DNA of 15,078 nucleotides, from assembly GCA_007120055.1 (NCBI GenBank), contig SKOL01000577.1:1-15078 (forward strand), read 5' to 3'. The notes beneath the pieces are model-generated. The model worked only from the letters and a program-made list of their open reading frames with translations. It was not told the DNA's origin and searched no databases. The DNA is from Anaerobacillus sp. (GTDB lineage: Bacteria > Bacillota > Bacilli > Bacillales_H > Anaerobacillaceae). The first letter of the stretch is position 1. Each line of letters begins with the position of its first letter. Positions 1,275 to 15,078 of the stretch are shown piece by piece. The translations under genes were made by a program, and so were the position numbers.

Positions 1275-1324
1275 TTTTGAGTCCCCCTATTTTTCGCATT
1301 TGATGTTTTCATAATCTATCTTTA

Positions 1325-1465
1325 CTAAGATGTTTTTCTTATTTGGTTTAGCAACGACCTTCTCTCAATTTCTTCTTTTATTAAATTAATGAAGTCCGCA
1401 CTAAGATTTAATTCAATAGCTTTATAATATGTTTGAATTATTAAGTCATTAGAAAAGTCTTTCAT
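1325..1465 (-). CDS. sda: Sda-like sporulation checkpoint inhibitor (46 aa)
   Basis: A 46-codon reading frame, ATG at 1465-1463 and TAG at 1327-1325, encoding a protein that begins MKDFSNDLIIQTYYKA. It carries the blocks YYKAIELNL-ADFI-LI and EEIERRSL. This agrees closely with Bacillus subtilis Sda as I recall it (also 46 residues, with an LSDELLIESYFKA-EMNL--DFI-LI pattern and a -RRSL- segment). Sda is a small helical hairpin that binds the dimerisation domain of the sporulation kinase KinA and blocks phosphorelay entry when replication is disturbed. The gene lies between two tetrahaem cytochrome genes. Its ribosome site is unusual: AAGGAGG sits 25 nt before the ATG with a small hairpin between them (separate entry). 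No in-frame start exists further upstream, because the frame runs into TGA without a start codon. Confidence 0.78.
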   Translation of the reverse strand: MKDFSNDLIIQTYYKAIELNLSADFINLIKEEIERRSLLNQIRKTS

Positions 1466-1497
1466 CCTGTCTCTGCAGTATGCAGTTCAACCTCCTT
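1466..1497 (-). promoter_or_regulatory. Split ribosome binding site of sda with intervening hairpin
   Basis: A perfect AAGGAGG (1497-1491, minus strand) is separated from the sda ATG by 25 nt, too far for normal initiation. The spacer contains CTGCA-TAC-TGCAG (1485-1473), a 5-bp stem with a 3-nt loop. Folding it would shorten the effective distance to about 12 nt. Only a weak GACAGG lies right next to the ATG. That this hairpin aids initiation is inference. Confidence 0.45.
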
Positions 1498-1631
1498 AAA
1501 ATTGTTGATATACAACATATGCTTCTTACATTTAGTTAATTTTGTTATTTTGTGACTCACCAAACTTTCTATATAGTGAGTAATCACAACCAGCACTGTT
1601 TCACTTTTTACCACATTTACTCTACAACTTA

Positions 1632-1660
1632 ACTATACTAGCTTTTTTATATCTCATCAA
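1632..1660 (-). promoter_or_regulatory. Candidate sigma-A promoter for sda
   Basis: On the minus strand, TTGATG (1660-1655) and TATAGT (1637-1632) are separated by exactly 17 bp, giving 4/6 and 5/6 matches to the vegetative consensus. It would start transcription near 1625, leaving a leader of about 160 nt. A 7/9 match to the DnaA box lies in that leader at 1607-1615. I give this low weight, although sda of B. subtilis is known to be DnaA-controlled. Confidence 0.4.
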
Positions 1661-1859
1661 TGCTACACGCCTTAAATACAGAATTTCCCCTACAACAAAA
1701 TAAAAGCCCTGACTAAGCAACTTAAAATAGTATGTGATTTTACCGATATAAATTGTCAAAAACTATGTATTTATATTAACTAATTACCTAATCAACTTTT
1801 CAAACAAAAACACCTCATTAGCGATCGCTCTCATTCCAGAATGAAAAACTTTTTCACAG

Positions 1860-1890
1860 AAAAAAAAGAGCTTATCCATGAGATAAGCTC
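1860..1890 (-). terminator. Intrinsic terminator of tetrahaem cytochrome copy 2
   Basis: GAGCTTATC (1868-1876) pairs with GATAAGCTC (1882-1890) around a CATGA loop. On the minus strand it is followed by eight T (1867-1860). The arm sequence is very like that of the terminator after copy 1 (shared GAGCTTA core and CTCCTTTAA flank). This suggests that gene and terminator were duplicated together. Confidence 0.8.
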
Positions 1891-1967
1891 CTTTAATATT
1901 CATGTATTCTATTATTCTTAAGTGCCTGTTCAACTGTCCAACGTTAGTTAATTTGTTGCTTTAAAGG

Positions 1968-2435
1968 TTAATTTGAATAATCTCTAAGGTAACCATGTAT
2001 GGACGGGCCATCATGACAGTCTGTACAAGAAAGGTTGTTTTCAGCATAAATTGCATGACCACTCAAGAATGCTTGACTACGATTTTCATTTTCTAAATTA
2101 TGGCAAGATAAACACTTATCGTCCGATATTCCTTTAGAAACTAATTCGTCATAATTGTTCGGGTCAACTTGACCTGCAAGTGTAGAGAAAGCTTTCATAG
2201 TACCTTCGACTTTATCTTTAACCAAGCCTTTAGTATGACAGTCTATACAAGAAACTTCAGCGTGCGATCTAGCCTCAAATTGTTCTACAAATTCAGGAGC
2301 ATCATGACAACTTAAGCAAAATCCATCAGATGATGTCGCTTTAACACCTTGGTTTGTTACAACCGCTAATACGATCCCAACAAATATGCTTCCTAAAATA
2401 ATTAATGATAACTTCTTATTGATCTTTTTAAACAT
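1968..2435 (-). CDS. Tetrahaem NapC/NrfH-type membrane cytochrome c, copy 2
   Basis: A 155-residue paralogue of the protein at 810-1274, with the same layout: basic start, one membrane span at about residues 9-27, and CXXCH motifs at 40-44, 63-67, 108-112 and 137-141. By family it would be a menaquinol-oxidising electron donor anchored on the outer membrane face. The ATG is preceded by AAGGTGA at suitable spacing. The gene begins 104 bp after the pentahaem lipoprotein gene on the same strand, and I see no strong terminator between them. Joint transcription with the lipoprotein is therefore plausible, which makes copy 2 the more likely redox partner. The block between haems 3 and 4 (NENRSQAFLSGHAIYAE) differs most from copy 1. 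This is the region where the two proteins could have diverged in partner choice, but that is inference. Confidence 0.85.
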   Translation of the reverse strand: MFKKINKKLSLIILGSIFVGIVLAVVTNQGVKATSSDGFCLSCHDAPEFVEQFEARSHAEVSCIDCHTKGLVKDKVEGTMKAFSTLAGQVDPNNYDELVSKGISDDKCLSCHNLENENRSQAFLSGHAIYAENNLSCTDCHDGPSIHGYLRDYSN

Positions 2436-2539
2436 TTCTAGTCACCTTCTTTTTTTGGGATGCTTTCAAGCAAATTATGTTATTTTCTCCGTTGCTAAAA
2501 AATCCTCTAAAAGTTATATTATTTTACCTTTATTATAGT

Positions 2540-3592
2540 TTATTGAAGCTTCCATAAAGACTCTTGTAATAAAGACTTAGCATATTTCGGATTATGCGCT
2601 CCACCACTCTTGTCACTATATACAAGATAATAGTTATAAGCAGCAACAAATGCTTCTTTGCTCACATTTTCAATATCAACAGGCTCCCCAGCAGCATCAA
2701 CAAACGGGAATGTTAGTCTTGACATACCGATTGCTGCAGCGCCATCTACAGCCGCTACTGCTGCATCGTGCAATTCTTCAAGTAACTCATCAAGTTCAGC
2801 TTGGAGGTTACCACCTACAGAAAAATCAGAAGTATTCGAGTGACATGAACCACAACTTGCTTCAATGTCAGCTATATCCATACTAAAGTTATGAGAGATA
2901 TACCCTTCCTCTGTTTCTGGCATATGACATCCAACACAACCTAGTAGTTGGTGACCGACAGAATTTGAGTATTCTACATCTGGATATTCCATTCCTCCGA
3001 TACCTGAATATAATGCCCCTGCATCATAGTGAGGGTATGCTGTCGGTTGTCCTTCACCAGACACCCATTCCTCGAACATACCTACTGTATCTCTTCGGCC
3101 GTTATGACACGCTATACATAGAGCTGAACTCTCACCTACATTAAAATCTTCATCCATAAACGGTACATATTCTGCTGGTGTAACACCAGTTGCTAACATC
3201 TCTTGTCCTACACCCGTATGACAAGTTGCGCAATCCATTGTCATTGGTAATTCAACTTCTTCGTCAGCTTCTTCGTCAGCTTGTGGTGTATAAGGATTGT
3301 CAGATAAGTGTTGTAAAAAACCATTTCCAGAGTGACAAGGTTGACAGCCGTCACGTCCTCCCGCTCTATTCAGGGCACCACTAGTACTTGCATGCCCTGT
3401 TAGTGCCCATTCAGCACTAATTGCTTCTACTACTGCTATACTACTAATATCTTCTGGCGTCGTTAGATTTGTACCTAACGATGCTGACGGATTATTATTT
3501 TCTTGTGGCGCTTCAGTCGTAGTAGTTTCACTACACGCTGTTAGAAAAAGAGCTACTATTAAAATTACTGCAATTGACCATAATTTCTTCAT
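2540..3592 (-). CDS. Pentahaem c-type cytochrome lipoprotein
   Basis: A 350-residue exported lipoprotein. The signal peptide MKKLWSIAVILIVALFLTAC has the lipobox LTAC with the lipidated Cys at 20, followed by a Thr/Asn-rich linker. Five CXXCH motifs lie at about 83-87, 121-125, 159-163, 219-223 and 247-251. The C-terminal helix ends in SGGAHNPKYAKSLL, a pattern shared with NrfA-like and other multihaem cytochromes. The frame opens further upstream (to 3637), but ATG-3592 has AGGAGG with 8 nt spacing and starts a perfect signal peptide, so I chose it. There is no CXXCK motif, so it is not a standard nitrite reductase NrfA. A strongly acidic stretch (QADEEADEEVE) separates haems 1 and 2. Role inferred: it takes electrons from the NrfH-like proteins next door to an extracellular or surface acceptor. 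The acceptor is not identifiable. Confidence 0.82.
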   Translation of the reverse strand: MKKLWSIAVILIVALFLTACSETTTTEAPQENNNPSASLGTNLTTPEDISSIAVVEAISAEWALTGHASTSGALNRAGGRDGCQPCHSGNGFLQHLSDNPYTPQADEEADEEVELPMTMDCATCHTGVGQEMLATGVTPAEYVPFMDEDFNVGESSALCIACHNGRRDTVGMFEEWVSGEGQPTAYPHYDAGALYSGIGGMEYPDVEYSNSVGHQLLGCVGCHMPETEEGYISHNFSMDIADIEASCGSCHSNTSDFSVGGNLQAELDELLEELHDAAVAAVDGAAAIGMSRLTFPFVDAAGEPVDIENVSKEAFVAAYNYYLVYSDKSGGAHNPKYAKSLLQESLWKLQ

Positions 3593-3682
3593 TATTTCTT
3601 CCTCCTCTTTTACACTACCATTATTCAATTTTTTCATATTTTATAAAATTCGTATAAAATCTCTTAATTTATTTATAAGACT

Positions 3683-3936: not shown

Positions 3937-3976
3937 CTAAAAAGCAAAAAAGCCCAACTAGAGTAGGCTTTTTGCT
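3937..3976 (-). terminator. Intrinsic terminator of the ycsG-pxpBAC operon
   Basis: AGCAAAAAAGCC (3943-3954) pairs with GGCTTTTTGCT (3966-3976) with a one-base bulge. Read on the minus strand it immediately follows the pxpC stop codon and ends in a T-rich tract (GCTTTTTTGCTTTTT). It closes the operon. Confidence 0.8.
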
Positions 3977-4938
3977 CATTTGATATTTGCAGCTATTTTT
4001 AATTGCTTCATGTTTTTTTCTTGTCTTCTATATAATTGTTGCGCTTTCTCAACCGATATTTGTTCAAAACAAATTTTTGTCCCGGGCATTTGTTGAACGA
4101 GTCGTGGAATGTCTGTGGTAATCACTGTACCTATGCGTGTATAACCACCTGAAGTTTGGCGATCCGCTAATAAAACAATTGGTTGACCACTTGCAGGCAC
4201 TTGAATAGTGCCAATTGTTATTGCATCTGAAAGGATATCAGCTTCTCCTCGATGTTCAATGATTGGTCCAGAGAGTCGACACCCCATGCGATCAACTTCT
4301 CTTGTAATTTCATACGACTCATTGAAAAATGTCGTTAAACCTTTTTCAGTAAAAGCATGATGATCAGGTCCGACAATAACTCGGAAAGGCTTATCGTTAG
4401 CATAGTTTGGAATAATTTCTGGAGATAATGCCCGACCACTAAGCTTTTTATGAGAATCATTCATTTCACCACAAGAAAGAACATCGCCTTTTCGAATTTC
4501 TCGGCCTTCAATACCACCCATATTGGCTTTTAAATATGTTGCCTTACTCCCTAAAACTTCGTTACCATTTATTCCACCAGCTACGGCAATATACGCTCGC
4601 ACACCATGTTTGGGTTGCCCAAACGCTAATGTTTGACCTTTCTTCGCATATATTGACCTCCAAGGCTTCACTGCTCTACCGTCAATCGTCGCCGATAAAT
4701 CAGCCCCTGTAATTGCAATAACAGTATCATCAAGCAACTGTAATACCGGGCCCATCATTGTTACTTCTAATGTTGCTGCTGTTGGATCGTTACCAACGAG
4801 TAGGTTCCCAATTCGATGAGCAACATTGTCCATCGCTCCGGAAACGACAATTCCATACTGTTGGTAACCGGTGCGGCCTGTATCTTGAATAGTGGTTAAT
4901 AGACCAGGCTTCTTTACCTCAAAGAGTGCATTTATCAT
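3976..4938 (-). CDS. pxpC: 5-oxoprolinase subunit C (KipA family, biotin-dependent carboxyltransferase-like)
   Basis: A cytoplasmic protein of 320 residues. Together with PxpA and PxpB it forms the prokaryotic ATP-dependent 5-oxoprolinase, which opens 5-oxo-L-proline to L-glutamate. Family marks are the start VKKPGLLTTIQDTGR, the early AMD-VAHRIGN-LVGN block, LE-T--GP-L, TGAD, RAYIAVAGGI, the YLKANMGGIEGR segment, and RMGCRLSGP with the following LSDAITIGTIQVP--GQPI-LLADRQT-GGY. Length and domain order are as expected. The ATG overlaps the pxpA stop in an ATGA arrangement, implying translational coupling. In B. subtilis the homologue KipA is known as a modulator of KipI toward the kinase KinA. 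The catabolic role is the better-founded reading here because pxpA is adjacent. Confidence 0.9.
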   Translation of the reverse strand: MINALFEVKKPGLLTTIQDTGRTGYQQYGIVVSGAMDNVAHRIGNLLVGNDPTAATLEVTMMGPVLQLLDDTVIAITGADLSATIDGRAVKPWRSIYAKKGQTLAFGQPKHGVRAYIAVAGGINGNEVLGSKATYLKANMGGIEGREIRKGDVLSCGEMNDSHKKLSGRALSPEIIPNYANDKPFRVIVGPDHHAFTEKGLTTFFNESYEITREVDRMGCRLSGPIIEHRGEADILSDAITIGTIQVPASGQPIVLLADRQTSGGYTRIGTVITTDIPRLVQQMPGTKICFEQISVEKAQQLYRRQEKNMKQLKIAANIK

Positions 4939-5708
4939 GATTTTTTGACAGCTCCAACGTTTTGCAAATTAATATTTTGTTCTAAAAGGGCCAACCTGAG
5001 CTTTTGTACGAAAAGAAGTGCACTTGGTTCATCCCCATGAACGCATATAGTATCGGCTTTTAACGGTATAACCGTTCCGTCAACCGCTGTCGTTTCTCCT
5101 TCCTTCGCCATCGTGATCACTCTTTCCACAGCCACATCGACGTCTTTTATCATCGCATTAGGCTCAGTTCTTGATGTTAATGTTCCATCAGGTTGATACG
5201 TACGGTCAGCAAAAACTTCGTTTGCTACAGTTAAGCCAAGCGCTTCACCTGCTCGTATTAGCTCGCCTCCGGATAAGCCAAATAATATGAGAGTTGGATC
5301 GGTAGCATAAACGGCTTCGGCGATCGCTTCAGCTATATCTTTATTAACTGAAGCAATATTAAATAAGGCTCCGTGCGGCTTTACATGCTGCATTTTAGTA
5401 CCGTGTATTTTACAAAATCCGTTTAACGCATTCACTTGATATACGACAGAATTGTAAATATCTCTCGGGTTTGAATTAATCACCCGACGTCCAAAGCCAA
5501 AAAGGTCGTTAAAGCCTGGATGTGCACCAATTGCTACATTCTTCTCGATAGCAAGTTGAACGGTACGGAACATAACATTATGGTCACCAGCATGATAACC
5601 GCAAGCAATATTTGCTGATGTAATTAACTCTAATACTTTGTCGTCTTGCCCTATTTTAAAATTTCCGTAACTTTCACCTAAATCACTATTTAAATCAATT
5701 GTTAACAT
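4935..5708 (-). CDS. pxpA: 5-oxoprolinase subunit A (LamB/YcsF family)
   Basis: A cytoplasmic 257-residue protein of the LamB/YcsF family, the subunit A of bacterial 5-oxoprolinase. Conserved blocks are all present: NSDLGESYG at the start, IACGYHAGD, IGAHPGF-D--GFGRR, VKPHGALFN, EVFADRTY, and ICVHGDEP near the C-terminus. The frame can be opened upstream at GTG codons (5720 or 5717), but these lie within the ribosome site AGGTGG. ATG-5708 is 8 nt downstream of that site and gives the usual MLTIDLNSDLGE start, so I chose it. It lies 55 bp after pxpB and overlaps pxpC by 4 bases, giving the order pxpB-pxpA-pxpC. Family assignment is firm. The reaction follows from established work on PxpABC. 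Confidence 0.92.
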   Translation of the reverse strand: MLTIDLNSDLGESYGNFKIGQDDKVLELITSANIACGYHAGDHNVMFRTVQLAIEKNVAIGAHPGFNDLFGFGRRVINSNPRDIYNSVVYQVNALNGFCKIHGTKMQHVKPHGALFNIASVNKDIAEAIAEAVYATDPTLILFGLSGGELIRAGEALGLTVANEVFADRTYQPDGTLTSRTEPNAMIKDVDVAVERVITMAKEGETTAVDGTVIPLKADTICVHGDEPSALLFVQKLRLALLEQNINLQNVGAVKKS

Positions 5709-5763
5709 AATAAACACCACCTACAATACTATTAGCAAAGTCTTTATTTATCACTAAACATCA

Positions 5764-6486
5764 TTATATATATTCGTACTGCACGACATATTCTTGTTTC
5801 TCGATTAGACTTTCAATTTCTTCATATTCTCGTTTTTCGATCGGACGAAACTGTACATAATCACCAGCCTTAAATAATGATGGTTGCTGGCGACTACCAT
5901 CGTATAAAACTAGTGGAGTTCGCCCAATAATTTGCCAGCCACCAGGTGTTTCTAAAGAATAAATTCCGGTTTGCTCGCCTGCGATGCCAACAGAACCCGC
6001 TGGCACTAAGGGACGAGGAACTGACAATCTTGGTGTGCTAATTGCCGTCGACATCCCCCCCATATACGGAAATCCAGGTGTAAAACCGAGCATATAAATC
6101 AAGTATTCTCCAGAAGTGTGAATTTCGATTACCTCTTCAACCGTCAAGTTATTGTGCGAAGCTACTTGATCAATGTCAGGACCAAGTTTACCACCATAAC
6201 AAACTGGAATTATGACACGCCTTGCTTTTGGAAGCGACACTTTATCAAGCTTAGAAAGGAGGCCACTTAAATCAAGAACAAGGCGATTATATGATGTTTT
6301 TGTCGGTTGATAATATACCGTCACTGCCGTATAACTTGGTGACCATTCAACGATACCTTTAGGCGGTTCCTCTTTTAGCCATTCACAAAAACTACGGATT
6401 TTTCGATTTACCTCTGTGGAAATCGTATCTCCAAAAGCAATTCGAACAGCCGAGTCTCCTAGAGGAGAACATCTTTGTTCAGCCAA
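5764..6486 (-). CDS. pxpB: 5-oxoprolinase subunit B (KipI family)
   Basis: A cytoplasmic protein of 240 residues. It has the N-terminal PLGDSAVRIAFG, the middle IP-CYGG--GPD--VA, the GFTPGFPYMGGM motif, RL--PRP-VPAGSVGIAG, QTGIY--ETPGGW-IIGRTP, and the end F-AGDYVQF-PI. These are diagnostic of the KipI/PxpB allophanate-hydrolase-like subunit. The frame also opens with GTG at 6495, but that codon is part of the ribosome site AAGGAG. The TTG at 6486 lies 8 nt behind it and restores the family length, so I take TTG as the start. It follows the transporter gene by 25 bp. In B. subtilis KipI also inhibits the sporulation kinase KinA; whether that applies here cannot be read from sequence. Confidence 0.9.
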   Translation of the reverse strand: MAEQRCSPLGDSAVRIAFGDTISTEVNRKIRSFCEWLKEEPPKGIVEWSPSYTAVTVYYQPTKTSYNRLVLDLSGLLSKLDKVSLPKARRVIIPVCYGGKLGPDIDQVASHNNLTVEEVIEIHTSGEYLIYMLGFTPGFPYMGGMSTAISTPRLSVPRPLVPAGSVGIAGEQTGIYSLETPGGWQIIGRTPLVLYDGSRQQPSLFKAGDYVQFRPIEKREYEEIESLIEKQEYVVQYEYI

Positions 6487-6511
6487 CTTTTTCACTCCTT
6501 ATCATTGCTAA

Positions 6512-7741
6512 TTAAAATAATTGTGGAATCATTTGAATTAATGTACGTACACCTAAATATGCTGTTAAAACAACTACAATTCCACCGAATGCTGTTAACC
6601 ATACCGGGTGTTTGTAATCACCGATAATTGATGTTTTGTGTGCCGCTAATAAGATAGATCCTAATGTTAAAGGTAAAATTAAGCCGTTAAATGCACCTGC
6701 TAAGATAAGTAATGCGACTGGACGACCGACCACTGCAAAAACAGCTGTTGAAAATACGATAAAACCAATAACCCAATAGTTACGATTTTTTTCAATCGAT
6801 TTATGGAACGTCGTTAAAAACGAAACAGATGTGTAAGCCGCTCCAATCACTGAAGTAATCCCTGCCGCCCATAGAACAAGTCCAAATAATCGTAATCCAA
6901 CTTCACCAGCAGCTGCTTGGAAAACTGAACCTGTCGGGTTATCGGCAGCTAACGCCACTCCACCTGATACAACTCCTAAAACGGCTAAGAATAGTAACAC
7001 ACGCATAACAGACGCAATAACAATCCCGTTAATCGCTGTATTTGTTACTTGTCTTAAATTTTCTTTTCCACTAATACCAGCGTCTAAAAGACGGTGTCCA
7101 CCTGCAAATGTAATATAACCACCAACAGTACCACCAACAATAGTAATGATTGCCAACATATCTACTTGAATAGGTGCAACGGTTCTTATAACCGCCTCAG
7201 CATATGGCGGCTTACTTACGAACATAACGTAAGCAGTTAAAAGAATCATTAATGCTCCTAAATATCTTACAACTTTATCCATTGCGACATTTGCTTGTTT
7301 AAATGAGAAAATAATAATACAAATAGCCCCTGTCATAACTGCACCGATCCTTGGATCAAAACCTAACAATGCATTAACACCTAAACCACCACCGGCAACA
7401 TTACCAATGTTAAACGCGAGTCCACCAAGAACAATAAAAAAGGCAACTACATAACCTAACCCAGGTAAAACTGCGTTTGCAATATCTTGACCACGTTTTT
7501 CTGATACAGCAATAATTCGCCAAATATTAACTTGAGCACCAATATCTAAAATAATTGACGCTAAAATGACGAAGGCAAAACTTGCAAGTAACTGTTCTGT
7601 AAATACAGCTGTTTGTGTTAAAAATCCTGGTCCAACTGCCGACGTTGCCATCAAGAAAGCTGCACCCATCATTGCACTTAACCGTTCTTTTGGGGTCATG
7701 CTCTTATTTGTTAAATCATCCTTCACTACTTTTTCATTCAC
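6512..7741 (-). CDS. ycsG: NRAMP-fold membrane transporter of the 5-oxoprolinase operon (YcsG-like)
   Basis: A polytopic membrane protein of 409 residues with about 11 hydrophobic segments. It belongs to the NRAMP superfamily and resembles B. subtilis YcsG, which is also linked to ycsF/kip genes. The GTG start at 7741 has AAAGGGTG about 7 nt upstream. Where true metal-transporting NRAMPs carry DPGN in helix 1, this protein has GPGF (37-40). Where they carry M-P-H in helix 6, it has AGGHR (213-217). The residues that coordinate manganese or iron are therefore missing. Because it is first in the pxp operon, I infer that it imports 5-oxoproline or a related compound rather than a metal ion. The annotation 'manganese transporter' would be misleading. 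It is preceded by a sigma-54 promoter. Confidence 0.82.
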   Translation of the reverse strand: MNEKVVKDDLTNKSMTPKERLSAMMGAAFLMATSAVGPGFLTQTAVFTEQLLASFAFVILASIILDIGAQVNIWRIIAVSEKRGQDIANAVLPGLGYVVAFFIVLGGLAFNIGNVAGGGLGVNALLGFDPRIGAVMTGAICIIIFSFKQANVAMDKVVRYLGALMILLTAYVMFVSKPPYAEAVIRTVAPIQVDMLAIITIVGGTVGGYITFAGGHRLLDAGISGKENLRQVTNTAINGIVIASVMRVLLFLAVLGVVSGGVALAADNPTGSVFQAAAGEVGLRLFGLVLWAAGITSVIGAAYTSVSFLTTFHKSIEKNRNYWVIGFIVFSTAVFAVVGRPVALLILAGAFNGLILPLTLGSILLAAHKTSIIGDYKHPVWLTAFGGIVVVLTAYLGVRTLIQMIPQLF

Positions 7742-7778
7742 TTTATCTCACCCTTTCGACTTTTATACTAATAAAAGT

Positions 7779-7794
7779 TGCAAGAAATGTACCA
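7779..7794 (-). promoter_or_regulatory. Sigma-54 (-24/-12) promoter of the ycsG-pxpBAC operon
   Basis: The minus strand reads TGGTAC-ATTTC-TTGCA (7794-7779). It matches the sigma-54 consensus TGGCAC-N5-TTGCW at all but one base and keeps the essential GG-N10-GC spacing. It lies 38 bp before the GTG of the transporter gene, which leaves a short leader. A gene for a sigma-54 activator is directly upstream. This combination makes the call strong without any search. Confidence 0.82.
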
Positions 7795-7868
7795 ACTTTT
7801 AAAAAAGTCTTTATTTTCTGTAAAATCGTTAGGTCGTCCTGAAATATAACAATTTTACAAACATTCAG

Positions 7869-7891
7869 GTGTTTTTAGTGATTAAAAACAC
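7869..7891. promoter_or_regulatory. Candidate enhancer (upstream activating) site for the sigma-54 regulator
   Basis: GTGTTTTTA (7869-7877) and TAAAAACAC (7883-7891) form a perfect 9-bp inverted repeat with a 5-bp centre. It sits about 100 bp upstream of the -12 element, the usual distance for an NtrC-type enhancer. A second, looser inverted repeat, CCTGAA (7838-7843) and TTCAGG (7864-7869), adjoins it. No T run follows on the minus strand, so a terminator for the preceding gene is less likely. Confidence 0.6.
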
Positions 7892-7932
7892 ATGAAAGAA
7901 TTGAGCGTTTTCACACACTTTGTGCATTTTCG

Positions 7933-9300
7933 CTACACACGATTGCTCATCTTATCCAAACGGCGCTGTAATGCAAAACGACTCATTCCAAGAAGCTCCG
8001 CACTTTTTGAGATATTCTGATCTGTTTGATTTAATGCTTTTTTTATATACATGTTTTCTACTTTTTCTAGTTCGTGTTTTAGTGAAAAGCCTTTCGAAAA
8101 AGGTAACTGTTGATTGCTATTGCTACTTTCTTGTTTATCTAATTGCAACAACTTCGGTAACGTTACTCCTGCTTCATACAAAACGACATACCTTTCCATT
8201 ACATTACGAAGCTCTCTTACATTTCCTGGCCAATTATATTGGAGCAAAGTTTGTAAATCCTCTTTGTGTAACGGTGGAGGAAACTTTCCTAGGCGCTTTG
8301 AAAACTCGTAAACATAATGCTTGCTAATCGGTTCAATATCTTCTATCCGCTCTTTCAACGGTGGTAATTGAAGTGGAATCACGTGCAAACGATAATATAA
8401 ATCAGAACGAAACGAGCCTGCCTCTACTGCTTTTTGCAAAGAACGATTCGTCGCAGCAATAATTCGCAAATTTGTCGTTAAATTTTCAAATCCACCAACA
8501 CGACGAAAACTACCATCCTCTAGTAATCTCAAAATTTTCACTTGAATATCAAGAGGCATTTCACCAATTTCATCTAGAAATAATGTCCCCCCATTTACAA
8601 CTTCAACGATCCCCTTTTTTCGTTCGACCGCACTTGTAAAAGAACCTTTCTCGTGCCCAAACAATTCACTTTCAATGAGGTGAATTGGTAATGCACCACA
8701 ATTTAATGCCATAAACGGTTTTGTAGCGCGAAGGCTCTCTTGATGGATTAGTCTTGCTATCACTTCTTTTCCTGTACCTGTCTCTCCTTGAATTAATACC
8801 GTTGTATCTGTTGTAGACGCTAATGCAACTTTTTTAATAACATTTTGCATTTGCTTTGACTTTGCTATGAATGTTTGTTCTTCCAGTCGTTCACCTAAGT
8901 CAGTCTCAGCTTTATTGAATACATCTTCTAGTCGCTCAATTTTCTCAAATGCTTTATCTACTTGTTCAACAAGTTCTTGAAAATCGAAAGGTTTGCTAAT
9001 AAATTCACAGGCTCCGCCTTTTATTGCCTTCATAATAGAATCTGGACTATCATAGGCCGTCATAATTATTACTTGTATATGAAACCATCGTTCTTTCATC
9101 TCATATAAAAACTCAAGGCCGTTCCCGTCTGGTAGGCGTACATCTAGTAATACTACATGTGGTTGAAACATTTCGATCTCGCTTTCACCTTTTTCTAGCG
9201 TATCTACCGCTTGTACATAATAACTACAATCTTGCAATCCTGCTTTTAATGAAAGCCGTATCGCTTGTTCATCTTCAATAATCAATATGCGTTTCTCCAC
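7933..9300 (-). CDS. NtrC-family sigma-54-dependent response regulator
   Basis: 455 residues in three domains. The receiver (1-120) has the acidic pocket ED at 9-10, phospho-acceptor D53, T81 and K103. The AAA+ activator (about 145-375) has Walker A GETGTGKE at 172-179, [10 protein letters not shown] before the sigma-54 loop, Walker B LFLDEIGE with D243-E244, and the [10 protein letters not shown] helix. A Fis-type helix-turn-helix occupies the last 50 residues ([19 protein letters not shown]). The loop that touches sigma-54 is GSFTSA (219-224) rather than the usual GAFTGA; the Thr is kept. The GTG start at 9300 follows the kinase stop with a 1-bp gap, so the pair is co-translated. Its evident target is the sigma-54 promoter 140 bp downstream of its own stop, before ycsG-pxpBAC. 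That link is inferred from position. Confidence 0.93.
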
Positions 9301-9301
9301 T

Positions 9302-10948
9302 TTAACCGTTCCCTTCTAGCAATATTTTTACGACCGTACCATTTCCCACTTCACTTTCTACTTTTATTTCCCCATTATTTTGCACTAACAGCTGTTCAAC
9401 AACCGCTAAACCTAACCCCGTTCCTTTCGTGTTTGTCGTAAAAAATGGGTAAAAGATTTTTGATATATGCTCTTTTTCAATTCCTTTACCATTATCAATA
9501 ATAGAAACTTCTACTTTTTCTGAAATATTTTTAACAGTAATGCGAATTGTTCCTTCACTCTCAATAGCATTAATCGCATTTAGTAAGAGATTAAGTAATA
9601 TTTGCTTCAAATGATCTTCATCGACAAAAACATATTGAAACTCATTTACTGCTAAGACGATCTTAATATTTCGATCTTCAAAAATTTTTTTTAACATAGA
9701 TCCTATTTCTAAAGTCACTTTTTTAACATTAACCCTTTGTTTCTTTGCTTGCTTTGGCCGAGCAAAATTTAACATTTTAGATAATGACTCGTTTAGGCGA
9801 TTAATTTCATCTTCTAACAGTGCAAACAGTTCCTTATCCTCATCTACAAGGTTTAACCTCTTTTTTAGTACTTGGGATGTCGTCTTCATTCCTGCTAACG
9901 GGTTTCTAATTTCATGGGTAATTTGTGCAGTTAATTCCCCGATCGAAGCTAACCGGTGTAATACTTCCATTCGTTTTTCAACTTGAACCTTTTCCGTCAC
10001 ATCTTCTGCCGTCCCAAGAACACCAATCACTTCATTTTTTTTGGAAATTAGAGGAACTTGCCGTACTGAGAATGTTTGTTCTTTCCCCTGATTTTGAAAT
10101 GTCCATTGCATTGGTTCAGCGTCTGAACATAACATTTTTTCTACCCACTCTTCCATTCGCTGTTCAAGCTCGGGGCTATTTTTGCAAAGCGTTTTCCATC
10201 GATCATTTCGATAAATGGTTTGATCCGTAAACTTTTTTGTATAAACACCAATAAACGTACTAGCTAGAATTTGCTCTTGAAATGTCTTTAAACGTTCTAA
10301 ATATTGTTGCTTCTTAGATAAAGTGTCGACCATATCTCCTAAATGATCACCAAGCACTCGAATTTCATCTTCGCGGTCTTCTACATATTCTATTGGTAAG
10401 TTAGCTTTTTTCCCTTCTCCTATTTCACGACAATAGTCTGCTAACTTTTGAATCGGCTTTGATAAATGGTGTGAAAGTAAAACTGTACTTTGAACAGCTA
10501 TAATAACAGCAATCATTACGACGATAATTGTGTATTTTTGAATTTGTAACAGTTCGTTCGTCCATAACGTCATTGATAGCGGCAATATAAAGGCTGTCCC
10601 ATCAATACCTGCTTTGGAATAAACCCATTCAGATGTAGTAAATCTACTATTTTGAAGGTACCAACCTTCTTCACTTATTTCATGATCTCGTATTAATTGA
10701 AGATGATCATTTCTCTTCATCAAATTTACTTTTTCATAGGCATTTTCTTTAGTGGTCCCATTCGTGATGAGATAGTCATAGACAGCAACGACTTGTAAGA
10801 CTTCATCCTCTCCTTTTTGAAGAAGTTGGTTTTTATAAGATGAAAAAGCAAACCAATAAGAGATGATCCCTGTCACGATAATAGGAATAGTAACAACCAG
10901 TATAAATGAAGTGAGCATCTTTCTTTCAATTGAATGCTTTATTTTCAC
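9302..10948 (-). CDS. Membrane sensor histidine kinase paired with the sigma-54 regulator
   Basis: 548 residues. Membrane spans at about 12-34 and 139-158 enclose an extracytoplasmic sensor region of roughly 100 residues that I do not recognise. A HAMP segment follows (about 159-212), then a divergent PAS-like domain (about 222-325), the phospho-acceptor H345 in ITHEIRNP, and a HATPase domain with N457 in LLLNLLLNAINAI-type context, D486 in DNGKGI, and GTGLGL at 510-515. This is the NtrB/PhoR-like architecture usual for partners of sigma-54 activators. The start is GTG, overlapping the symporter stop as GTGA, and the stop is directly followed by the regulator. Kinase, symporter and regulator are therefore one translational unit. 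The ligand is unknown; 5-oxoproline is the inferred candidate. Confidence 0.92.
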   Translation of the reverse strand: MKIKHSIERKMLTSFILVVTIPIIVTGIISYWFAFSSYKNQLLQKGEDEVLQVVAVYDYLITNGTTKENAYEKVNLMKRNDHLQLIRDHEISEEGWYLQNSRFTTSEWVYSKAGIDGTAFILPLSMTLWTNELLQIQKYTIIVVMIAVIIAVQSTVLLSHHLSKPIQKLADYCREIGEGKKANLPIEYVEDREDEIRVLGDHLGDMVDTLSKKQQYLERLKTFQEQILASTFIGVYTKKFTDQTIYRNDRWKTLCKNSPELEQRMEEWVEKMLCSDAEPMQWTFQNQGKEQTFSVRQVPLISKKNEVIGVLGTAEDVTEKVQVEKRMEVLHRLASIGELTAQITHEIRNPLAGMKTTSQVLKKRLNLVDEDKELFALLEDEINRLNESLSKMLNFARPKQAKKQRVNVKKVTLEIGSMLKKIFEDRNIKIVLAVNEFQYVFVDEDHLKQILLNLLLNAINAIESEGTIRITVKNISEKVEVSIIDNGKGIEKEHISKIFYPFFTTNTKGTGLGLAVVEQLLVQNNGEIKVESEVGNGTVVKILLEGNG

Positions 10949-12378
10949 GATTTAAACTCTCCCTTACGTCGTAGCATGACAAATACGAGTCCAGAAATAA
11001 TTAATGATGGTACAACTGGCTGAATATAAAACTGCAGTGAATCAGGAATTAAAAACAACCAAATATTATAGCAAACTAATCCTACACCAATCGAATACAT
11101 AGCACCTTTTCGAGTTGCATTTTTCAAAAACAACCCTCCAAAAAGTGGAAAAAAGAACGTTACGGCAATTATTCCCCATATTTGCCCACTAAAAGCAACA
11201 AGTTCACTTAGCGGTCGTAACGCAACAAGTAGTGAGCCAAATGAAAAAATAACAACTGACCATTTATTCAATGACAACCGCTGACGTTCTCCTAACTTCC
11301 CTTTCGCTAAGCGCTCATAAAAATCATATACAAAGCTGCTACAAAGAATTAGTAATTGTGAATTTGCCGTTGAAACACATGCTGCAACAATACTCATTAA
11401 AATCCAACCTTTAAGTGGCGAATCAAAAACTTCATGAATTAATAAAGGCAGTAACTCATCACTATCAGTAAAAACTCTCTCTTCAAATATAACAATTGAG
11501 CCAAAGCCGATAACGATTGTAGCCGCATAGACAATTCCTAAAATTAAAGTACTCAAGCCAACCATACGGATCGCTACTTTCGTTGAAGAAGCAGATAATA
11601 ATCTTACTGCATATTGAGGGTTTGCTGCTAAACCAAGCCCAAGTGAGAAAAACGCACTAATGAAAATAATGATTGTTCCAAGTCCTTCTGGGAATAGTGT
11701 AAACAATCTCACGACTTCCTCATTTTTTTGAGTCTCAATAATTGAAGTATGAATGGATAAAAATCCCCCTGTATGTTGAAGTACATAATATGTAGCCATA
11801 GAAATACCGGTAATTATAAGAAAAAAGTTGAATACATCTGTCCGTGCAACTGAAATAAGCCCTCCATATGTCGTATACAAAAGAAACATAAAGACGAATA
11901 CAACTGCAACAGTATACGGAATATCTAACATATATGAAACCACTATACCGAAACCACGAATTTGGATTGCAATATAAAGTATATAGCTAACAATTAAAAC
12001 AACACTCGTTAACACTTGTAAACTTTTACTATTATACCTTTTATAGAAAAACTCCGGGATCGTCAAAATCTCATATTCTCGTAATTTTTTTGCCATTAAA
12101 ATTAAAAAAATAGAGCCGAGAAACCAGCATATAACGGTTGTAAAAATAATTGAATATCCATTTTCATAAATAAGAGCGGGAATCCCAAGCATTGAAGCGG
12201 CACTAAACCAAGTAGCAGAAAACGTGCAAATACTTAAAAAAATTCCTAAAGAACGGCTTGCTACATAATAATCACTTACTGTTTCCGAACGATTTATACC
12301 TTCTTTCCCGAGATATAAAATGACAATAATATAAATAAAAAAGAACCCTAAATAATAAAATGGTTCAAACAACGTCAT
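10945..12378 (-). CDS. Sodium:solute symporter family protein, part of the sensor operon
   Basis: About 477 residues with some 13 hydrophobic segments, in the sodium:solute symporter (SSF, LeuT-fold) family. Recognisable are the N-terminal SDYYVASRSLG, TFSATWFSAASMLGIP in the helix that lines the ion and substrate sites, the EILTIPEFFYKRYNS loop, TYGGLISVARTDVFN, and the LAANPQYAVRLLSA and ACVSTANSQLLI segments. Two ATGs in tandem (12381, 12378) follow AAGGGGG; the second has the better spacing, so I give it. The gene overlaps the small membrane protein upstream by 14-17 nt and the kinase downstream by 4 nt. Transported solute cannot be read from sequence. Its place in an operon with a sensor kinase suggests either uptake of the inducer or a direct part in signalling. 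Confidence 0.88.
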   Translation of the reverse strand: MTLFEPFYYLGFFFIYIIVILYLGKEGINRSETVSDYYVASRSLGIFLSICTFSATWFSAASMLGIPALIYENGYSIIFTTVICWFLGSIFLILMAKKLREYEILTIPEFFYKRYNSKSLQVLTSVVLIVSYILYIAIQIRGFGIVVSYMLDIPYTVAVVFVFMFLLYTTYGGLISVARTDVFNFFLIITGISMATYYVLQHTGGFLSIHTSIIETQKNEEVVRLFTLFPEGLGTIIIFISAFFSLGLGLAANPQYAVRLLSASSTKVAIRMVGLSTLILGIVYAATIVIGFGSIVIFEERVFTDSDELLPLLIHEVFDSPLKGWILMSIVAACVSTANSQLLILCSSFVYDFYERLAKGKLGERQRLSLNKWSVVIFSFGSLLVALRPLSELVAFSGQIWGIIAVTFFFPLFGGLFLKNATRKGAMYSIGVGLVCYNIWLFLIPDSLQFYIQPVVPSLIISGLVFVMLRRKGEFKS

Positions 12379-12478
12379 CATCTCCCCCTTTTCTAATTAA
12401 AAACTCTGCTAAAAAATAAGGGGTGATAACACATATAATGAATACTAGACTAGTAATTATGATCGTTTTTAAAGGCAT
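12365..12478 (-). CDS. Small single-span membrane protein (symporter accessory protein)
   Basis: A 37-residue protein starting MPLKTIIITSLVFIICVITP. It has one hydrophobic helix (about residues 4-28), a basic turn (IRKGG) and an acidic tail (DDDVV). The frame is open further upstream, but the preceding residues are not protein-like in context. ATG-12478 has AGGA about 9 nt upstream, so I chose it. Its stop codon lies inside the start of the symporter gene, a strong sign of coupled translation. Very small proteins of this type encoded just before SSF symporters are annotated as symporter small accessory proteins, and I recall the same arrangement in other Firmicutes. A role in folding or stability of the symporter is inference. 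Confidence 0.72.
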   Translation of the reverse strand: MPLKTIIITSLVFIICVITPYFLAEFLIRKGGDDDVV

Positions 12479-12608: not shown

Positions 12609-13208
12609 TTATTTAAACCAGCCCTTCTCCTTAAACCGGGTAATTGCTTCGATCCGATTACTAACATCTAGTTTGTCTAAAATCGAAGAGACGTAATTGC
12701 GAACAGTGCCTGTTGTGATGAAAAGCTGTCCTGCGATATCTTTAGTACTTTTACCTTCAGACATTAAAACAAGCACTTCGCTTTCACGTTCGGTTAATGG
12801 ATTTTCTTCATTATAAACTTCATCAACTAACTCTGATGCATAAATGCGGCGCCCTTCCATCACTTTTCGGATCGCACTTGCTAACTCTTCGCTCGGGCTA
12901 TCTTTTAACATATAGCCACGAACACCTGCTTTCACAGCTCGAGCAAAATAGCCAGAGCGAGCAAATGTGGTTAAAATAATAACTTTGCAACTTGAATCTT
13001 TTAATTGTTCAGCGGCATCAAGACCACTTAGTCCTGGCATTTCAATATCCATGATACAAATATCTGGTTGATGCTTATTAACAAGTTTCACTGCATCTGT
13101 CCCATTATTTGCTTTGCCGACAACTGACATATCATCCTCTAAATCAAGCAAAGAAGCAAGTGCGCCTAATAACATTTTTTGATCTTCAGCAATGACAATT
13201 TTAATCAT
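12609..13208 (-). CDS. desR: DesR, LuxR/NarL-type response regulator of membrane fluidity
   Basis: 199 residues, the same length as B. subtilis DesR. The receiver domain has the acidic pair E8-D9, phospho-acceptor D54 in MDIEMPG, T-T-FARSGYF around the switch residue, and K in MLKDSPSEEL. The C-terminal LuxR-type domain has LTERESEVLVLMSEGKSTKDIA and the recognition helix TTGTVRNYVSSILDKL. Known role in the family: when phosphorylated by DesK in a stiffened membrane, two DesR dimers bind upstream of des and activate it. The ATG overlaps the desK stop as ATGA. The gene is followed by its own terminator. The target site upstream of des lies beyond the window. Confidence 0.93.
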   Translation of the reverse strand: MIKIVIAEDQKMLLGALASLLDLEDDMSVVGKANNGTDAVKLVNKHQPDICIMDIEMPGLSGLDAAEQLKDSSCKVIILTTFARSGYFARAVKAGVRGYMLKDSPSEELASAIRKVMEGRRIYASELVDEVYNEENPLTERESEVLVLMSEGKSTKDIAGQLFITTGTVRNYVSSILDKLDVSNRIEAITRFKEKGWFK

Positions 13209-14344
13209 CGACTATCCCCCTTTTCCGATTGTTTAGAAACATTTGGCACTTTAATAGCTAACATTGTTCCTTTGTGAGAAATAACTTCTAAAGACCCATT
13301 CACAAATTCAAGTCGTTCCTTCATTCCTTGAAGACCATTACCACGCAAGTCATAAAGAGGTCCCGAGATACCGACTCCGTTATCGATAACTTTAACAAGA
13401 AACTCTGTCGTTGACTGCTCGATAATGAGTGAACAAGAGGTAGCTTGACTATGTTTTACAACATTATTAATTGCTTCTTTTATACACATACTAACGACAT
13501 TTTCAGCAATTAATGAAATATTAAATACTTTCGGGTTTCCTTTTAAAGTAAACTGAATTTGAGCAGCATTTAAAATCTGTTTCACTCGATAAATTTCGTC
13601 TTCTAACTTCGTGCCACGCATTTCCGTCACCATTTCACGAACTTCTTTCAGGGCAATTCGTGCTGTTTTTTGGACATCTTTAATTTCTTGGCGAGCGAGA
13701 TTTGGATTTTTATGAACTAATTTACTTGCTAAATCGCTTTTTAAGCCTATTAATGAAAGCTTTTGTCCAAGAGTGTCGTGTAGGTCGCGAGAAATTCTTT
13801 GGCGCTCTTCTAGTTTAACAAGCTCAGAAATTCGTTTATTAGCATCCTCTAATTTTCCTTGGAGGACATCTTCTTTATTTTTATTATAAGTGCTAACCGG
13901 CAAAAGAATAACTGCCATCAAACTAAGTACAACAAACGGTAGTTGTGTGACTAAAACACGATTATGCACAGTTACGAAACCATAATAAATCGTCGAAAGT
14001 GTCGTGATAAGTAAAATAATATATAAAATAATAAAGGCCTTTCGATTTTTTAAGTTCCCGATAAAAAATGCTAAAAAGAGAAAGAAATAAATATAGCCAA
14101 ATTTCAAACTCATTGCTGTTGAAATCGCAATTTGGACACTCGTCCAAAAATAGACAAGCCACCCTTTAGAAATAAAGGATAGCACATAGCATATGAAGAA
14201 CCCGACAACCATGATAATACCAAATACTGTATGTGCCGTAGCTGATGTTTGAAAAATAAAGTAAAAAGGAAGGATATAGAAGACAATCCAAACATAAGGG
14301 CTAAGCCCTGTGTGTTCACGAAATTTTTGTCTTAATTTAGTCAT
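13205..14344 (-). CDS. desK: DesK, membrane-order (cold) sensor histidine kinase
   Basis: 379 residues. Four to five closely spaced membrane spans cover about residues 16-150. A short coiled linker (155-182) follows, then the HisKA_3 dimerisation domain with phospho-acceptor H189 in ISRDLHDTLGQKLSLIGLK, and a compact HATPase with KEAINNVVKHS, DNGVG and GLQGMKERL. This is the DesK signature; B. subtilis DesK is of similar size with its His at the equivalent place. It senses membrane thickness and order through the transmembrane part and switches between kinase and phosphatase. A strong ribosome site, AAGGAGGAGG, precedes the ATG. It follows des by 114 bp and overlaps desR by 4 bases. Confidence 0.93.
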   Translation of the reverse strand: MTKLRQKFREHTGLSPYVWIVFYILPFYFIFQTSATAHTVFGIIMVVGFFICYVLSFISKGWLVYFWTSVQIAISTAMSLKFGYIYFFLFLAFFIGNLKNRKAFIILYIILLITTLSTIYYGFVTVHNRVLVTQLPFVVLSLMAVILLPVSTYNKNKEDVLQGKLEDANKRISELVKLEERQRISRDLHDTLGQKLSLIGLKSDLASKLVHKNPNLARQEIKDVQKTARIALKEVREMVTEMRGTKLEDEIYRVKQILNAAQIQFTLKGNPKVFNISLIAENVVSMCIKEAINNVVKHSQATSCSLIIEQSTTEFLVKVIDNGVGISGPLYDLRGNGLQGMKERLEFVNGSLEVISHKGTMLAIKVPNVSKQSEKGDSR

Positions 14345-14405
14345 CTTCTACCTCCTCCTTTTTGCTGAAATTTTTTATGAATGAATGGTGATACGGTTTG
14401 GCGGT

Positions 14406-14421
14406 GATGAAATTTGTCATC
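14406..14421. promoter_or_regulatory. Inverted repeat between des and desK, possible DesR-type operator
   Basis: GATGA-AATTTG-TCATC is a perfect 5-bp inverted repeat with a 6-bp centre, located in the 114-bp gap between des and desK. Its minus-strand form ATGACAAATTTCAT is of the paired ATGAC/GTCAT-like type that I associate with DesR targets, but I cannot verify the consensus here. It could also be a weak RNA hairpin between the two genes. Confidence 0.25.
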
Positions 14422-14458
14422 CCTATCCTAACTGTCACACTTACTAGTAGTATATAGC

Positions 14459-15078
14459 TTAGTTGATTTTCCTCGCAAGTTCAATGTCATTATCATTACA
14501 TTGCTCACCGATGCGTTCAATTGTGTTACTTTTATAACCTTTTAATTCTTTAAAACTAACAAACGTTTTATTTTCTTCGTCCCAAAGGCGATAGCTTAGC
14601 GATTTTAAGCTCGTTCGGAGCGTAACCGTTGTTGCTTTTTGAAGAGGGATCGTTTCGTTATGCGCTTTTTCTAAGTGATAGTTTGGGACTCTTGGACTCA
14701 AATGGTGAACATGGTGAAAGCCGATGTTACCAGTTAGCCACTGTAACGGTTTTGGCAGCTGATAATAAGAACTTCCCTCTACAGCAGCTTGTACATAACT
14801 CCACTCATTTTCATGTTCAAAATAAGAGTGTTCAAACTGGTGCTGGACGTAAAACAACCAAATACCTAGTAAACCCGATAAGAAAAAGATTGGTCCTTGG
14901 ATCATTACAAATGCTTGCCAGCCAATAAGCAAGATTAATAACGCATATAAAGCGACTATCGCTACATTTGTTACATACGTATTAATGCGTTCCTTAGGCT
15001 TTGCTCCTTTTCGATTAAATCGATATTCAATGAGGAACACCGCAACCGGTCCAACACCAAGCATAATAAAAGGATTAC
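14459..15078 (-). CDS. des: Acyl-lipid fatty acid desaturase Des, C-terminal part (partial)
   Basis: The frame ends with TAA at 14461-14459 and runs without a stop to the window edge; the ATG at 15064 is internal (preceded by Asn-Pro-Phe-Ile). About 206 residues of a membrane-bound di-iron desaturase are visible. They include two hydrophobic spans, the histidine box HQFEH, and the third box in NIGFHHVHHLSPRVPNY, where the HHVHH cluster binds iron. The phrase EWSYVQAAVEGSS-Y-LPK is typical of Bacillus Des, which introduces a cis double bond into membrane lipid acyl chains after a temperature drop. The order des-desK-desR and the strand match the known B. subtilis locus. The first histidine box and the DesR-controlled promoter are outside the window. 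Confidence 0.92.
   Translation of the reverse strand, partial: NPFIMLGVGPVAVFLIEYRFNRKGAKPKERINTYVTNVAIVALYALLILLIGWQAFVMIQGPIFFLSGLLGIWLFYVQHQFEHSYFEHENEWSYVQAAVEGSSYYQLPKPLQWLTGNIGFHHVHHLSPRVPNYHLEKAHNETIPLQKATTVTLRTSLKSLSYRLWDEENKTFVSFKELKGYKSNTIERIGEQCNDNDIELARKIN

What the first reader, a model, noticed from the sequence alone, without database searches (positions are those of the whole stretch)
3976..12478. A sigma-54-controlled 5-oxoproline utilisation system with its own transporter-linked sensor
Seen: an operon of small membrane protein, SSF symporter, histidine kinase and NtrC-type regulator lies directly upstream of ycsG-pxpBAC. Between them is a TGGTAC-N5-TTGCA promoter with an inverted repeat about 100 bp upstream. 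Known: NtrC-type regulators act only with sigma-54, and PxpABC opens 5-oxoproline to glutamate. Inference: the kinase-regulator pair senses 5-oxoproline (or a peptide or glutamate-related signal) and switches on its breakdown. I am not aware of a described two-component sigma-54 circuit for pyroglutamate in Firmicutes.
Basis: partly seen in the sequence, partly recalled or inferred. Interest (0 to 1): 0.78.

Follow-up and report, generated by a model that had tools for sequence, protein, structure and literature searches.

The report
Sigma-54 switch for pyroglutamate use
A bacterial sensor-and-switch pair sits beside the genes that break down pyroglutamate (5-oxoproline) in many Firmicutes and very probably turns them on through the special sigma factor sigma-54; in one group of relatives the switch has lost its sigma-54 contact and the promoter has changed with it.

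Summary
The anatomy is real: small membrane ORF, SSF symporter, histidine kinase (HK), NtrC-type regulator (RR), then a perfect -24/-12 promoter and ycsG-pxpBAC. It is not a chance neighbourhood. In one bacterial order, 19 of 19 genomes with this symporter carry the whole block next to pxp; some Clostridia carry it too. In 14 of 14 pxp-linked loci whose RR keeps a GAFTGA-like loop (window: GSFTSA) a sigma-54 site lies between RR and target operon; 0 of 20 ycsG loci without the kinase have one in front of ycsG or the first pxp gene.

Unexpected: one clade (15 loci, 100/100 support) has lost the GAFTGA loop and the sigma-54 site together. Its gap carries a CodY-like box instead (15 of 15), although rpoN is present (9 of 9 checked). 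So 'acts only with sigma-54' is doubtful for this family, and this natural loss supports sigma-54 control in the window.

Inferred, not shown: the signal (5-oxoproline or a relative), the symporter's sensory role, transcription in the derived clade. rpoN could not be checked in the window's own genome. New variant of a known kind.

The parts
12365..12478 (-). small membrane protein (37 aa) directly upstream of and overlapping the SSF gene
   Evidence: similar ORFs before SSF in L098 and L099; no family hit (run on the longer 66-aa ORF)
10945..12381 (-). sodium:solute symporter (SSF) family transporter, candidate sensor partner or importer
   Evidence: Pfam PF00474, 172 bits; phmmer to vSGLT and SiaT chains
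9302..10948 (-). sensor histidine kinase: TM, about 100-aa outside region, TM, HAMP, PAS-like fold, HisKA, HATPase
   Evidence: Pfam; AlphaFold model pLDDT 77.6, pTM 0.35; membrane topology and the PAS-like reading are my interpretation of the model
7933..9300 (-). NtrC-type response regulator with GSFTSA in place of GAFTGA
   Evidence: Pfam Response_reg, Sigma54_activat, HTH_8; alignment
7921..7936 (-). degenerate regulator dyad GTAGCGAAAATGCACA overlapping the RR stop codon; possible first enhancer site
   Evidence: read by eye from the sequence; resembles the palindrome seen in relatives; it was not scored, because the gap scan began after the stop codon
7902..7917 (-). candidate enhancer TGTGTGAAAACGCTCA, 11 of 14 matches to TGTGCGAnnTCGCACA, 123 bp upstream of the -24 element
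   Evidence: 1 of 300 shuffles as good; conserved in alignment with L098 and L099
7819..7860 (-). second inverted repeat (13-nt core arms), also not conserved
7779..7794 (-). sigma-54 -24/-12 promoter TGGTAC-N5-TTGCA in front of ycsG
6512..7741 (-). ycsG/pxpT-like transporter (NRAMP family by Pfam, lacks the DPGN and MPH metal motifs)
   Evidence: Pfam PF01566; motif check
5764..6495 (-). pxpB, 5-oxoprolinase subunit
   Evidence: TIGR00370 equivalog above cut-off
4935..5720 (-). pxpA, 5-oxoprolinase subunit (true start probably the ATG a few codons downstream)
   Evidence: PF03746; NF003814 subfamily above cut-off, PxpA equivalogs below theirs
3976..4938 (-). pxpC, 5-oxoprolinase subunit
   Evidence: PF02626; TIGR00724 above cut-off, PxpC equivalog below its cut-off

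Best explanation
A dedicated two-component, sigma-54 circuit for 5-oxoproline use. The SSF-HK-RR operon is made from an ordinary sigma-A-type promoter. The membrane kinase, perhaps together with the neighbouring SSF symporter, responds to external 5-oxoproline or a closely related compound and phosphorylates the regulator. The regulator binds palindromes just after its own stop codon, loops to sigma-54 RNA polymerase at TGGTACATTTCTTGCA, and switches on ycsG-pxpBAC: uptake plus ATP-dependent opening of 5-oxoproline to glutamate. Shown by sequence and comparison: conserved gene block, conserved promoter and palindrome, loop/promoter co-loss in one clade. Inferred: phosphotransfer, DNA binding, ligand, the SSF protein's role, the sigma-A promoter.
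For: Linkage: HK in 13 of 249 genomes of one order, block contiguous with pxp in 13 of 13; a larger draw, SSF in 19 of 397, adds 6 loci, 6 of 6 contiguous. Clostridia: SSF in 6 of 391, 5 of 6 next to pxp, plus L002. Sigma-54 site (at least 10 of 12) in the RR-to-target gap in 14 of 14 pxp-linked GAFTGA-like loci, chance per gap 0.5-6.2%; 0 of 20 in front of ycsG or the first pxp gene in ycsG loci without the kinase, 16 of these 20 having all three pxp genes. Palindrome of at least 10 of 14 in 12 of those 14 gaps; in 20 whole genomes the only three places with at most 1 mismatch are all RR-pxp gaps. rpoN in 15 of 15 genomes tested, the nearest relative G109 among them. GAFTGA loss and sigma-54 site loss fall on one branch. 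5-oxoproline: a YcsG homologue and PxpABC are needed for growth on it in C. glutamicum (PMC13274462, abstract and passages).
Against: No experiment. The window's own rpoN could not be checked. The window loop GSFTSA has two substitutions; GSFTGA, GAFTDA and GAFTHA are listed as keeping activity (PMC4641369, passages), GSFTSA is not. The window palindrome is the weaker kind (11 of 14) and the consensus was drawn by eye from relatives; two of 14 gaps (L131, L133) fail it. SSF-HK-RR blocks of the same family face other genes in L135 and L142, so the sensor family as a whole is not 5-oxoproline-specific. Regulation of pxp genes elsewhere uses other regulators (PMC13274462, PMC10448178).
Confidence: 0.8

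Rival explanations
1. The circuit is real but the signal is something else (a peptide, glutamate, another lactam or a general carbon/nitrogen cue), with the SSF symporter carrying that compound and YcsG carrying 5-oxoproline.
For: YcsG (or a TRAP transporter in L136 and L137) already fills the uptake role inside the regulated operon, while SSF sits in the sensor operon; related SSF-HK-RR blocks face other targets: a membrane-like protein without Pfam hit in L135 and a periplasmic-binding-protein gene in L142.
Against: Strong linkage to pxp in Bacilli and Clostridia favours a signal tied to this pathway.
Confidence: 0.35
2. The window regulator no longer works with sigma-54: GSFTSA is a step towards the loss seen in the GAFTGA-less clade, and transcription comes from an unseen sigma-A promoter.
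For: Two loop substitutions; a related clade has lost the loop.
Against: The window keeps a 12 of 12 promoter and L098 keeps GSFTGA with a 12 of 12 promoter; in the loss clade the sigma-54 site is gone in 15 of 15.
Confidence: 0.08
3. The operon is mainly for manganese: YcsG is an Mn importer as claimed for B. subtilis (MntG).
For: PMC10448178 (passages) reports raised cellular Mn on ycsG overexpression and failure to build a triple importer mutant.
Against: YcsG in 16 of 16 proteins checked lacks DPGN and MPH (the motifs are recalled as the metal-binding ones); a TRAP transporter takes YcsG's place in L136 and, by gene sizes, in L137; PMC13274462 shows need for PxpT on 5-oxoproline.
Confidence: 0.07
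4. Conserved neighbourhood without regulation: the regulator acts elsewhere.
For: No binding data.
Against: In G109 the palindrome (at most 2 mismatches) occurs once in 4.4 Mb, in this very gap; 14 of 14 sigma-54 sites.
Confidence: 0.03

Closest known systems
pxpTABC with PxpR (Corynebacterium glutamicum, PMC13274462; abstract and passages)
   Same: YcsG-type transporter plus PxpABC for 5-oxoproline; dedicated local regulator
   Different: PxpR is a GntR-type repressor that binds 5-oxoproline; here a membrane kinase, a response regulator and sigma-54
pxpA-ycsG operon of Bacillus subtilis (PMC10448178; passages)
   Same: same enzymes and transporter
   Different: KipR, TnrA, CcpA, AhrC and MntR control there; no sigma-54 or two-component control described in the passages read
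CbrA/CbrB of Pseudomonas (review PMC7918813; passages)
   Same: SSF module, histidine kinase and response regulator in nutrient control; CbrB recalled to be NtrC-type and sigma-54 dependent
   Different: in CbrA symporter, STAC and kinase are one protein; here separate genes, no STAC hit in the kinase
GAFTGA-less NtrC of Caulobacter and Rhodobacter capsulatus (PMC10274813; passages)
   Same: NtrC-type regulator that lost the sigma-54 loop and works at sigma-70 promoters, as proposed for L102-L110 and L143-L148
   Different: here the loss falls on one branch inside a family whose other loci, and the window, still show matching sigma-54 sites at the same operon
sigma-54 regulons of Clostridiales (PMC6615313; term search of the main text)
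   Same: comparative prediction of EBP-promoter pairs in Firmicutes
   Different: 'oxoproline', 'YcsF', 'symporter' and 'allophanate' each occur 0 times in its main text; supplements not read

Membership tests
sigma-54 enhancer-binding response regulators (NtrC family) | receiver + AAA+ + Fis HTH | tested here: met
   PF00072, PF00158, HTH_8
sigma-54 enhancer-binding response regulators (NtrC family) | Walker A and B intact | tested here: met
   GETGTGKE and TLFLDE
sigma-54 enhancer-binding response regulators (NtrC family) | GAFTGA loop | tested here: inconclusive
   window GSFTSA; nearest relative GSFTGA; GSFTGA listed as keeping activity, GSFTSA not listed
sigma-54 enhancer-binding response regulators (NtrC family) | -24/-12 promoter with upstream sites | tested here: met
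   (sequence only)
sigma-54 enhancer-binding response regulators (NtrC family) | rpoN in the genome | tested here: inconclusive
   no window genome; present in 15 of 15 relatives tested
PxpABC 5-oxoprolinase | three subunits PxpA, PxpB, PxpC together | tested here: met
   PxpB equivalog and PxpA subfamily model above cut-off; PxpA equivalogs (best 356 of 392 bits) and PxpC equivalog NF045499 (268 of 500 bits) below theirs, TIGR00724 above
PxpABC 5-oxoprolinase | 5-oxoproline hydrolysis | not testable with these tools
   needs assay
CbrA-type SSF sensor kinase | SSF and kinase in one polypeptide with a STAC domain | tested here: not met
   separate genes 10945-12381 and 9302-10948; kinase Pfam hits hold no STAC
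KipR/IclR-controlled pxp operon | IclR regulator beside pxp | tested here: not met
   none of the 10 window proteins scanned is IclR-type; an IclR gene was identified by Pfam in one kinase-less locus, L113
NRAMP metal importers | DPGN and MPH motifs | tested here: not met
   absent in 16 of 16 YcsG proteins; motifs recalled

The most novel reading that the evidence does not exclude
A sensor kinase-symporter-regulator circuit for 5-oxoproline, spread over Bacilli and Clostridia, that was rewired once in evolution. On a single branch the regulator lost its sigma-54-contacting loop, the target promoter lost its -24/-12 element and gained a CodY box, while kinase, symporter, DNA-binding helix and part of the regulator's binding sites stayed. 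That would be a natural before/after pair for how a sigma-54 activator becomes sigma-54 independent at one and the same operon.
Probability: 0.6. Interest if true: 0.72.

Novelty: new variant of a known kind. Interest (0 to 1): 0.6.

Why it matters
5-Oxoproline forms spontaneously from glutamate and glutamine, so its recovery matters to many bacteria, yet only one regulator shown to bind it (PxpR) turned up in the papers read here. This adds a second, unrelated control logic with a concrete promoter, binding-site motif and phylogenetic range. It also bears on the dispute over whether YcsG carries 5-oxoproline or manganese: TRAP genes take its place in two loci. The clade that lost the GAFTGA loop and the promoter together makes the evolution from sigma-54 to sigma-54-independent activation directly testable with matched orthologues.

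Tried and rejected
Dyads 7864-7896 and 7819-7860 as enhancer: rejected, not conserved in L098 and L099. Sigma-54 control of the SSF-HK-RR operon itself: no site at 10 or more of 12 within 500 bp upstream of SSF in 15 of 16 loci; in L105 a 10 of 12 match (TGGTAGAAACGTGGCT) sits at -115, judged poor. The promoter of the derived clade: no convincing -35/-10 pair read by eye, left open. Plasmids: no match for SSF. Small family draws around G109, G059 and G140 (7, 2 and 4 genomes) gave no further loci.

Rows left out of the 14-against-15 table, with reasons: L135 (12 of 12 sigma-54 site, other target), L142 (other target; its site TGGCATCATTTTTGCT at 7930 was cut off by the gene start I assumed, so one search prints None), L140 (12 of 12 site, contig ends soon after), L139 (SSF and YcsG remnants joined at one point, HK and RR absent: deletion or assembly error), L141 (unrelated SSF locus). 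L081-L097 are short fragments: L081, L082 and L085-L097 of loci counted elsewhere, L083 and L084 with HK only. Within the 14: L136 has no PxpB hit; L131's NRAMP gene does not match window YcsG by tblastn; the sigma-54 site lies 433 bp from ycsG in L100 and 221 bp from the first gene in L136, 42-105 bp in the others. Palindrome failures among the 14: L131 (8 of 14) and L133 (9 of 14). The consensus was set by eye after seeing the gaps, so its shuffle values are not independent. The CodY consensus is recalled, and the box was noticed after the fact; the written prediction then held in 6 of 6 new loci, but all six fell in the same clade, so only the 'loss' half was tested. Controls: 16 of the 20 kinase-less ycsG loci have all three pxp genes, L119 has pxpA only, L116, L117 and L127 have none in the stretch fetched. 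In one search only the first pxp/ycsG gene's upstream region was scanned; one search repeated it for ycsG and every pxp gene: still 0 of 20 in front of ycsG or the first gene; six loci have a 10- or 11-of-12 match upstream of a later gene.
Full report
WHAT IS THERE. All genes of the finding lie on the minus strand. Pfam and NCBIfam confirm PxpC, PxpA, PxpB, an NRAMP-family YcsG, an NtrC-type response regulator (RR), a HAMP/HisKA kinase (HK) and an SSF symporter. The 191-bp gap between RR and ycsG holds TGGTACATTTCTTGCA at 7794-7779, the only match of TGGYAYN5TTGCW in the window (0.07 expected). The window's kinase is recorded on a 39-kb contig and no whole genome is held.

IS THE LINKAGE REAL? 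In one order around a Halalkalibacter genome, the window HK (E at most 1e-50) is in 13 of 249 genomes; in 13 of 13 the order SSF-HK-RR-ycsG-pxpB-pxpA-pxpC is kept on one strand (L100 has two extra genes between pxpB and pxpA). A larger draw with SSF (E at most 1e-70) gave 19 of 397, the same 13 and 6 more; the 6 are also contiguous. In a Clostridia draw SSF (E at most 1e-60) is in 6 of 391, five next to pxp genes (L001, L131-L134) and one (L135) next to a 480-aa protein, membrane-like by eye, without Pfam hit. L002 (Anaerotruncus) adds another pxp locus. A draw from the class of the Halalkalibacter genome gave 6 of 398: L136, L137 and L138 are pxp-linked (L136 without a PxpB hit), L142 has another target, L140 ends too early, L139 is a remnant, L141 is unrelated. 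YcsG itself (E at most 1e-60) is in 116 of 249 genomes, so most ycsG loci in that order lack this kinase; the association runs from sensor block to pxp, not the reverse.

IS SIGMA-54 INVOLVED? Among pxp-linked loci whose RR keeps a GAFTGA-like loop (window GSFTSA, L098 GSFTGA, the others GAFTGA, NAFTGA or HAFTGA), 14 of 14 have a GG-N10-GC site scoring at least 10 of 12 between RR and the first target gene. Shuffled gaps give such a site in 0.5-6.2% of cases. Of the 103 ycsG-positive genomes without the kinase I fetched 20 (20 of the 21 best-scoring): 0 of 20 have such a site within 600 bp of ycsG or of the first pxp gene; 16 of the 20 have all three pxp genes. Their neighbours differ; one divergent regulator (L113) is IclR-type. 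rpoN is present in 15 of 15 genomes tested.

WHERE DOES THE REGULATOR BIND? Right after, or overlapping, the RR stop codon many loci carry TGTGCGAnnTCGCACA-like palindromes. Best matches reach at least 10 of 14 in 12 of the 14 gaps, and these lie 77-149 bp upstream of the -24 element (ties included); L131 and L133 fail. The window has TGTGTGAAAACGCTCA (11 of 14) at 7917-7902 and a poorer neighbour, read by eye, at 7936-7921. In 20 genomes searched with up to 2 mismatches there are 69 places against 157 for the reversed-pattern control, so 2-mismatch hits mean nothing; but the only three places with at most 1 mismatch are all RR-pxp gaps (G109, G051, G832), and in G109 that is the only hit in 4.4 Mb. 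This suggests a one-operon regulon. In an alignment of the gaps of window, L098 and L099 only this dyad and the promoter stand out. The gaps of L135 and L140, whose RRs face other or unknown genes, have no good palindrome (8 of 14 or less). The palindromes often lie inside terminator-like hairpins, so part of their symmetry may serve termination; that is a caveat.

A NATURAL LOSS EXPERIMENT. In 15 loci (L102-L110, L143-L148) the RR has lost GAFTGA (for example KNSFSTQ in L102, ENSVRDQ in L103, a deletion in L110). In the nine aligned, Walker B is kept in all and Walker A in eight, with L102 reading GETGIGKE. In 15 of 15 the gap has no GG-N10-GC sigma-54 site at all. Instead it holds a conserved block containing a CodY-type box, 13-14 of 15 against AATTTTCWGAAAATT (consensus recalled): 9 of 9 (shuffle values at most 0.007) and 6 of 6, where the expectation had been written down first. 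The best score in the 17 other SSF-HK-RR gaps and in the 20 control loci is 12. CodY is present in 22 of 22 genomes tested, with and without the loop, so its presence does not discriminate; rpoN is present in the 9 of these 15 genomes that were checked. On the RR tree the loss needs one change, branch support 100/100, nested among sigma-54-type rows with midpoint rooting; L102 is the first offshoot. It is one event, so it is a consistent story, not a statistical correlation. Precedents for GAFTGA-less NtrC proteins acting at sigma-70 promoters exist (PMC10274813, passages).

TRANSPORTERS. In L136 and L137 the place of YcsG is taken by a TRAP set: DctP, DctQ and DctM by Pfam in L136, genes of matching size and place in L137. 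A B. pertussis TRAP system for 5-oxoproline is mentioned in PMC13274462. YcsG of B. subtilis has been called an Mn importer (PMC10448178, passages), while its C. glutamicum relative PxpT is needed for growth on 5-oxoproline (PMC13274462). None of 16 YcsG proteins has DPGN or MPH. I lean to 5-oxoproline.

KINASE AND SIGNAL. The HK model (pLDDT 77.6, pTM 0.35) is read as two membrane helices, about 100 outside residues with helices and strands, HAMP, a PAS-like region 224-316 and the catalytic core. The 50 structure hits listed are kinases, phytochromes and the like. The ligand stays an inference. The SSF operon has no good sigma-54 site upstream and, by eye, a TATAAT-like box in several loci, which would fit a constitutive sensor operon and an inducible target.

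LITERATURE. No description of a sigma-54 or two-component circuit for 5-oxoproline was found in these searches of the held library (listings and abstract starts seen): (1 paper, unrelated use of the terms, passages; 10 papers, none on this by title; 0), 104, 105, and term searches inside PMC6615313 and PMC12316311. Most subscription papers are not in the library; the C. difficile Pxp paper was not held.

VERDICT. Observation confirmed; core inference well supported by comparison; enhancer site moved; 'only with sigma-54' put in doubt for this family; signal open.

Noticed in passing
window 12609-15078: DesK-type kinase (DesK_N), LuxR-type response regulator and a partial fatty acid desaturase lie directly upstream on the same strand, which looks like the des-desK-desR arrangement of membrane-fluidity control (recalled).
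   Followed up: partly
window 810-3637: Two similar small NapC/NirT-like multihaem cytochromes and a larger multihaem protein with a Cytochrom_C552 match, which I find unusual company in a Bacillaceae-like contig.
   Followed up: partly
L100 14024-15822: Two genes that read like a serine recombinase and a TnpB-like transposase (by eye, no family search) lie between pxpB and pxpA.
   Followed up: partly
L139 4725-5962 (reverse orientation): SSF residues 26-198 are followed at once by YcsG residues 171-409; no kinase or regulator hit in the stretch: a deletion or an assembly join.
   Followed up: partly
L137 11892-13763: Genes that read like biotin carboxyl carrier protein and biotin carboxylase (by eye) lie between the TRAP-like genes and pxpBAC.
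   Followed up: no
L142 and L135: Related SSF-HK-RR blocks followed by sigma-54 sites and other genes (a periplasmic binding protein in L142, a protein without Pfam hit in L135): a wider family of modular sigma-54 sensor blocks.
   Followed up: partly
L131 9019-9807: A D-glutamate cyclase gene (PF07286) heads the pxp operon behind the sigma-54 site, which may link D-glutamate to 5-oxoproline.
   Followed up: no
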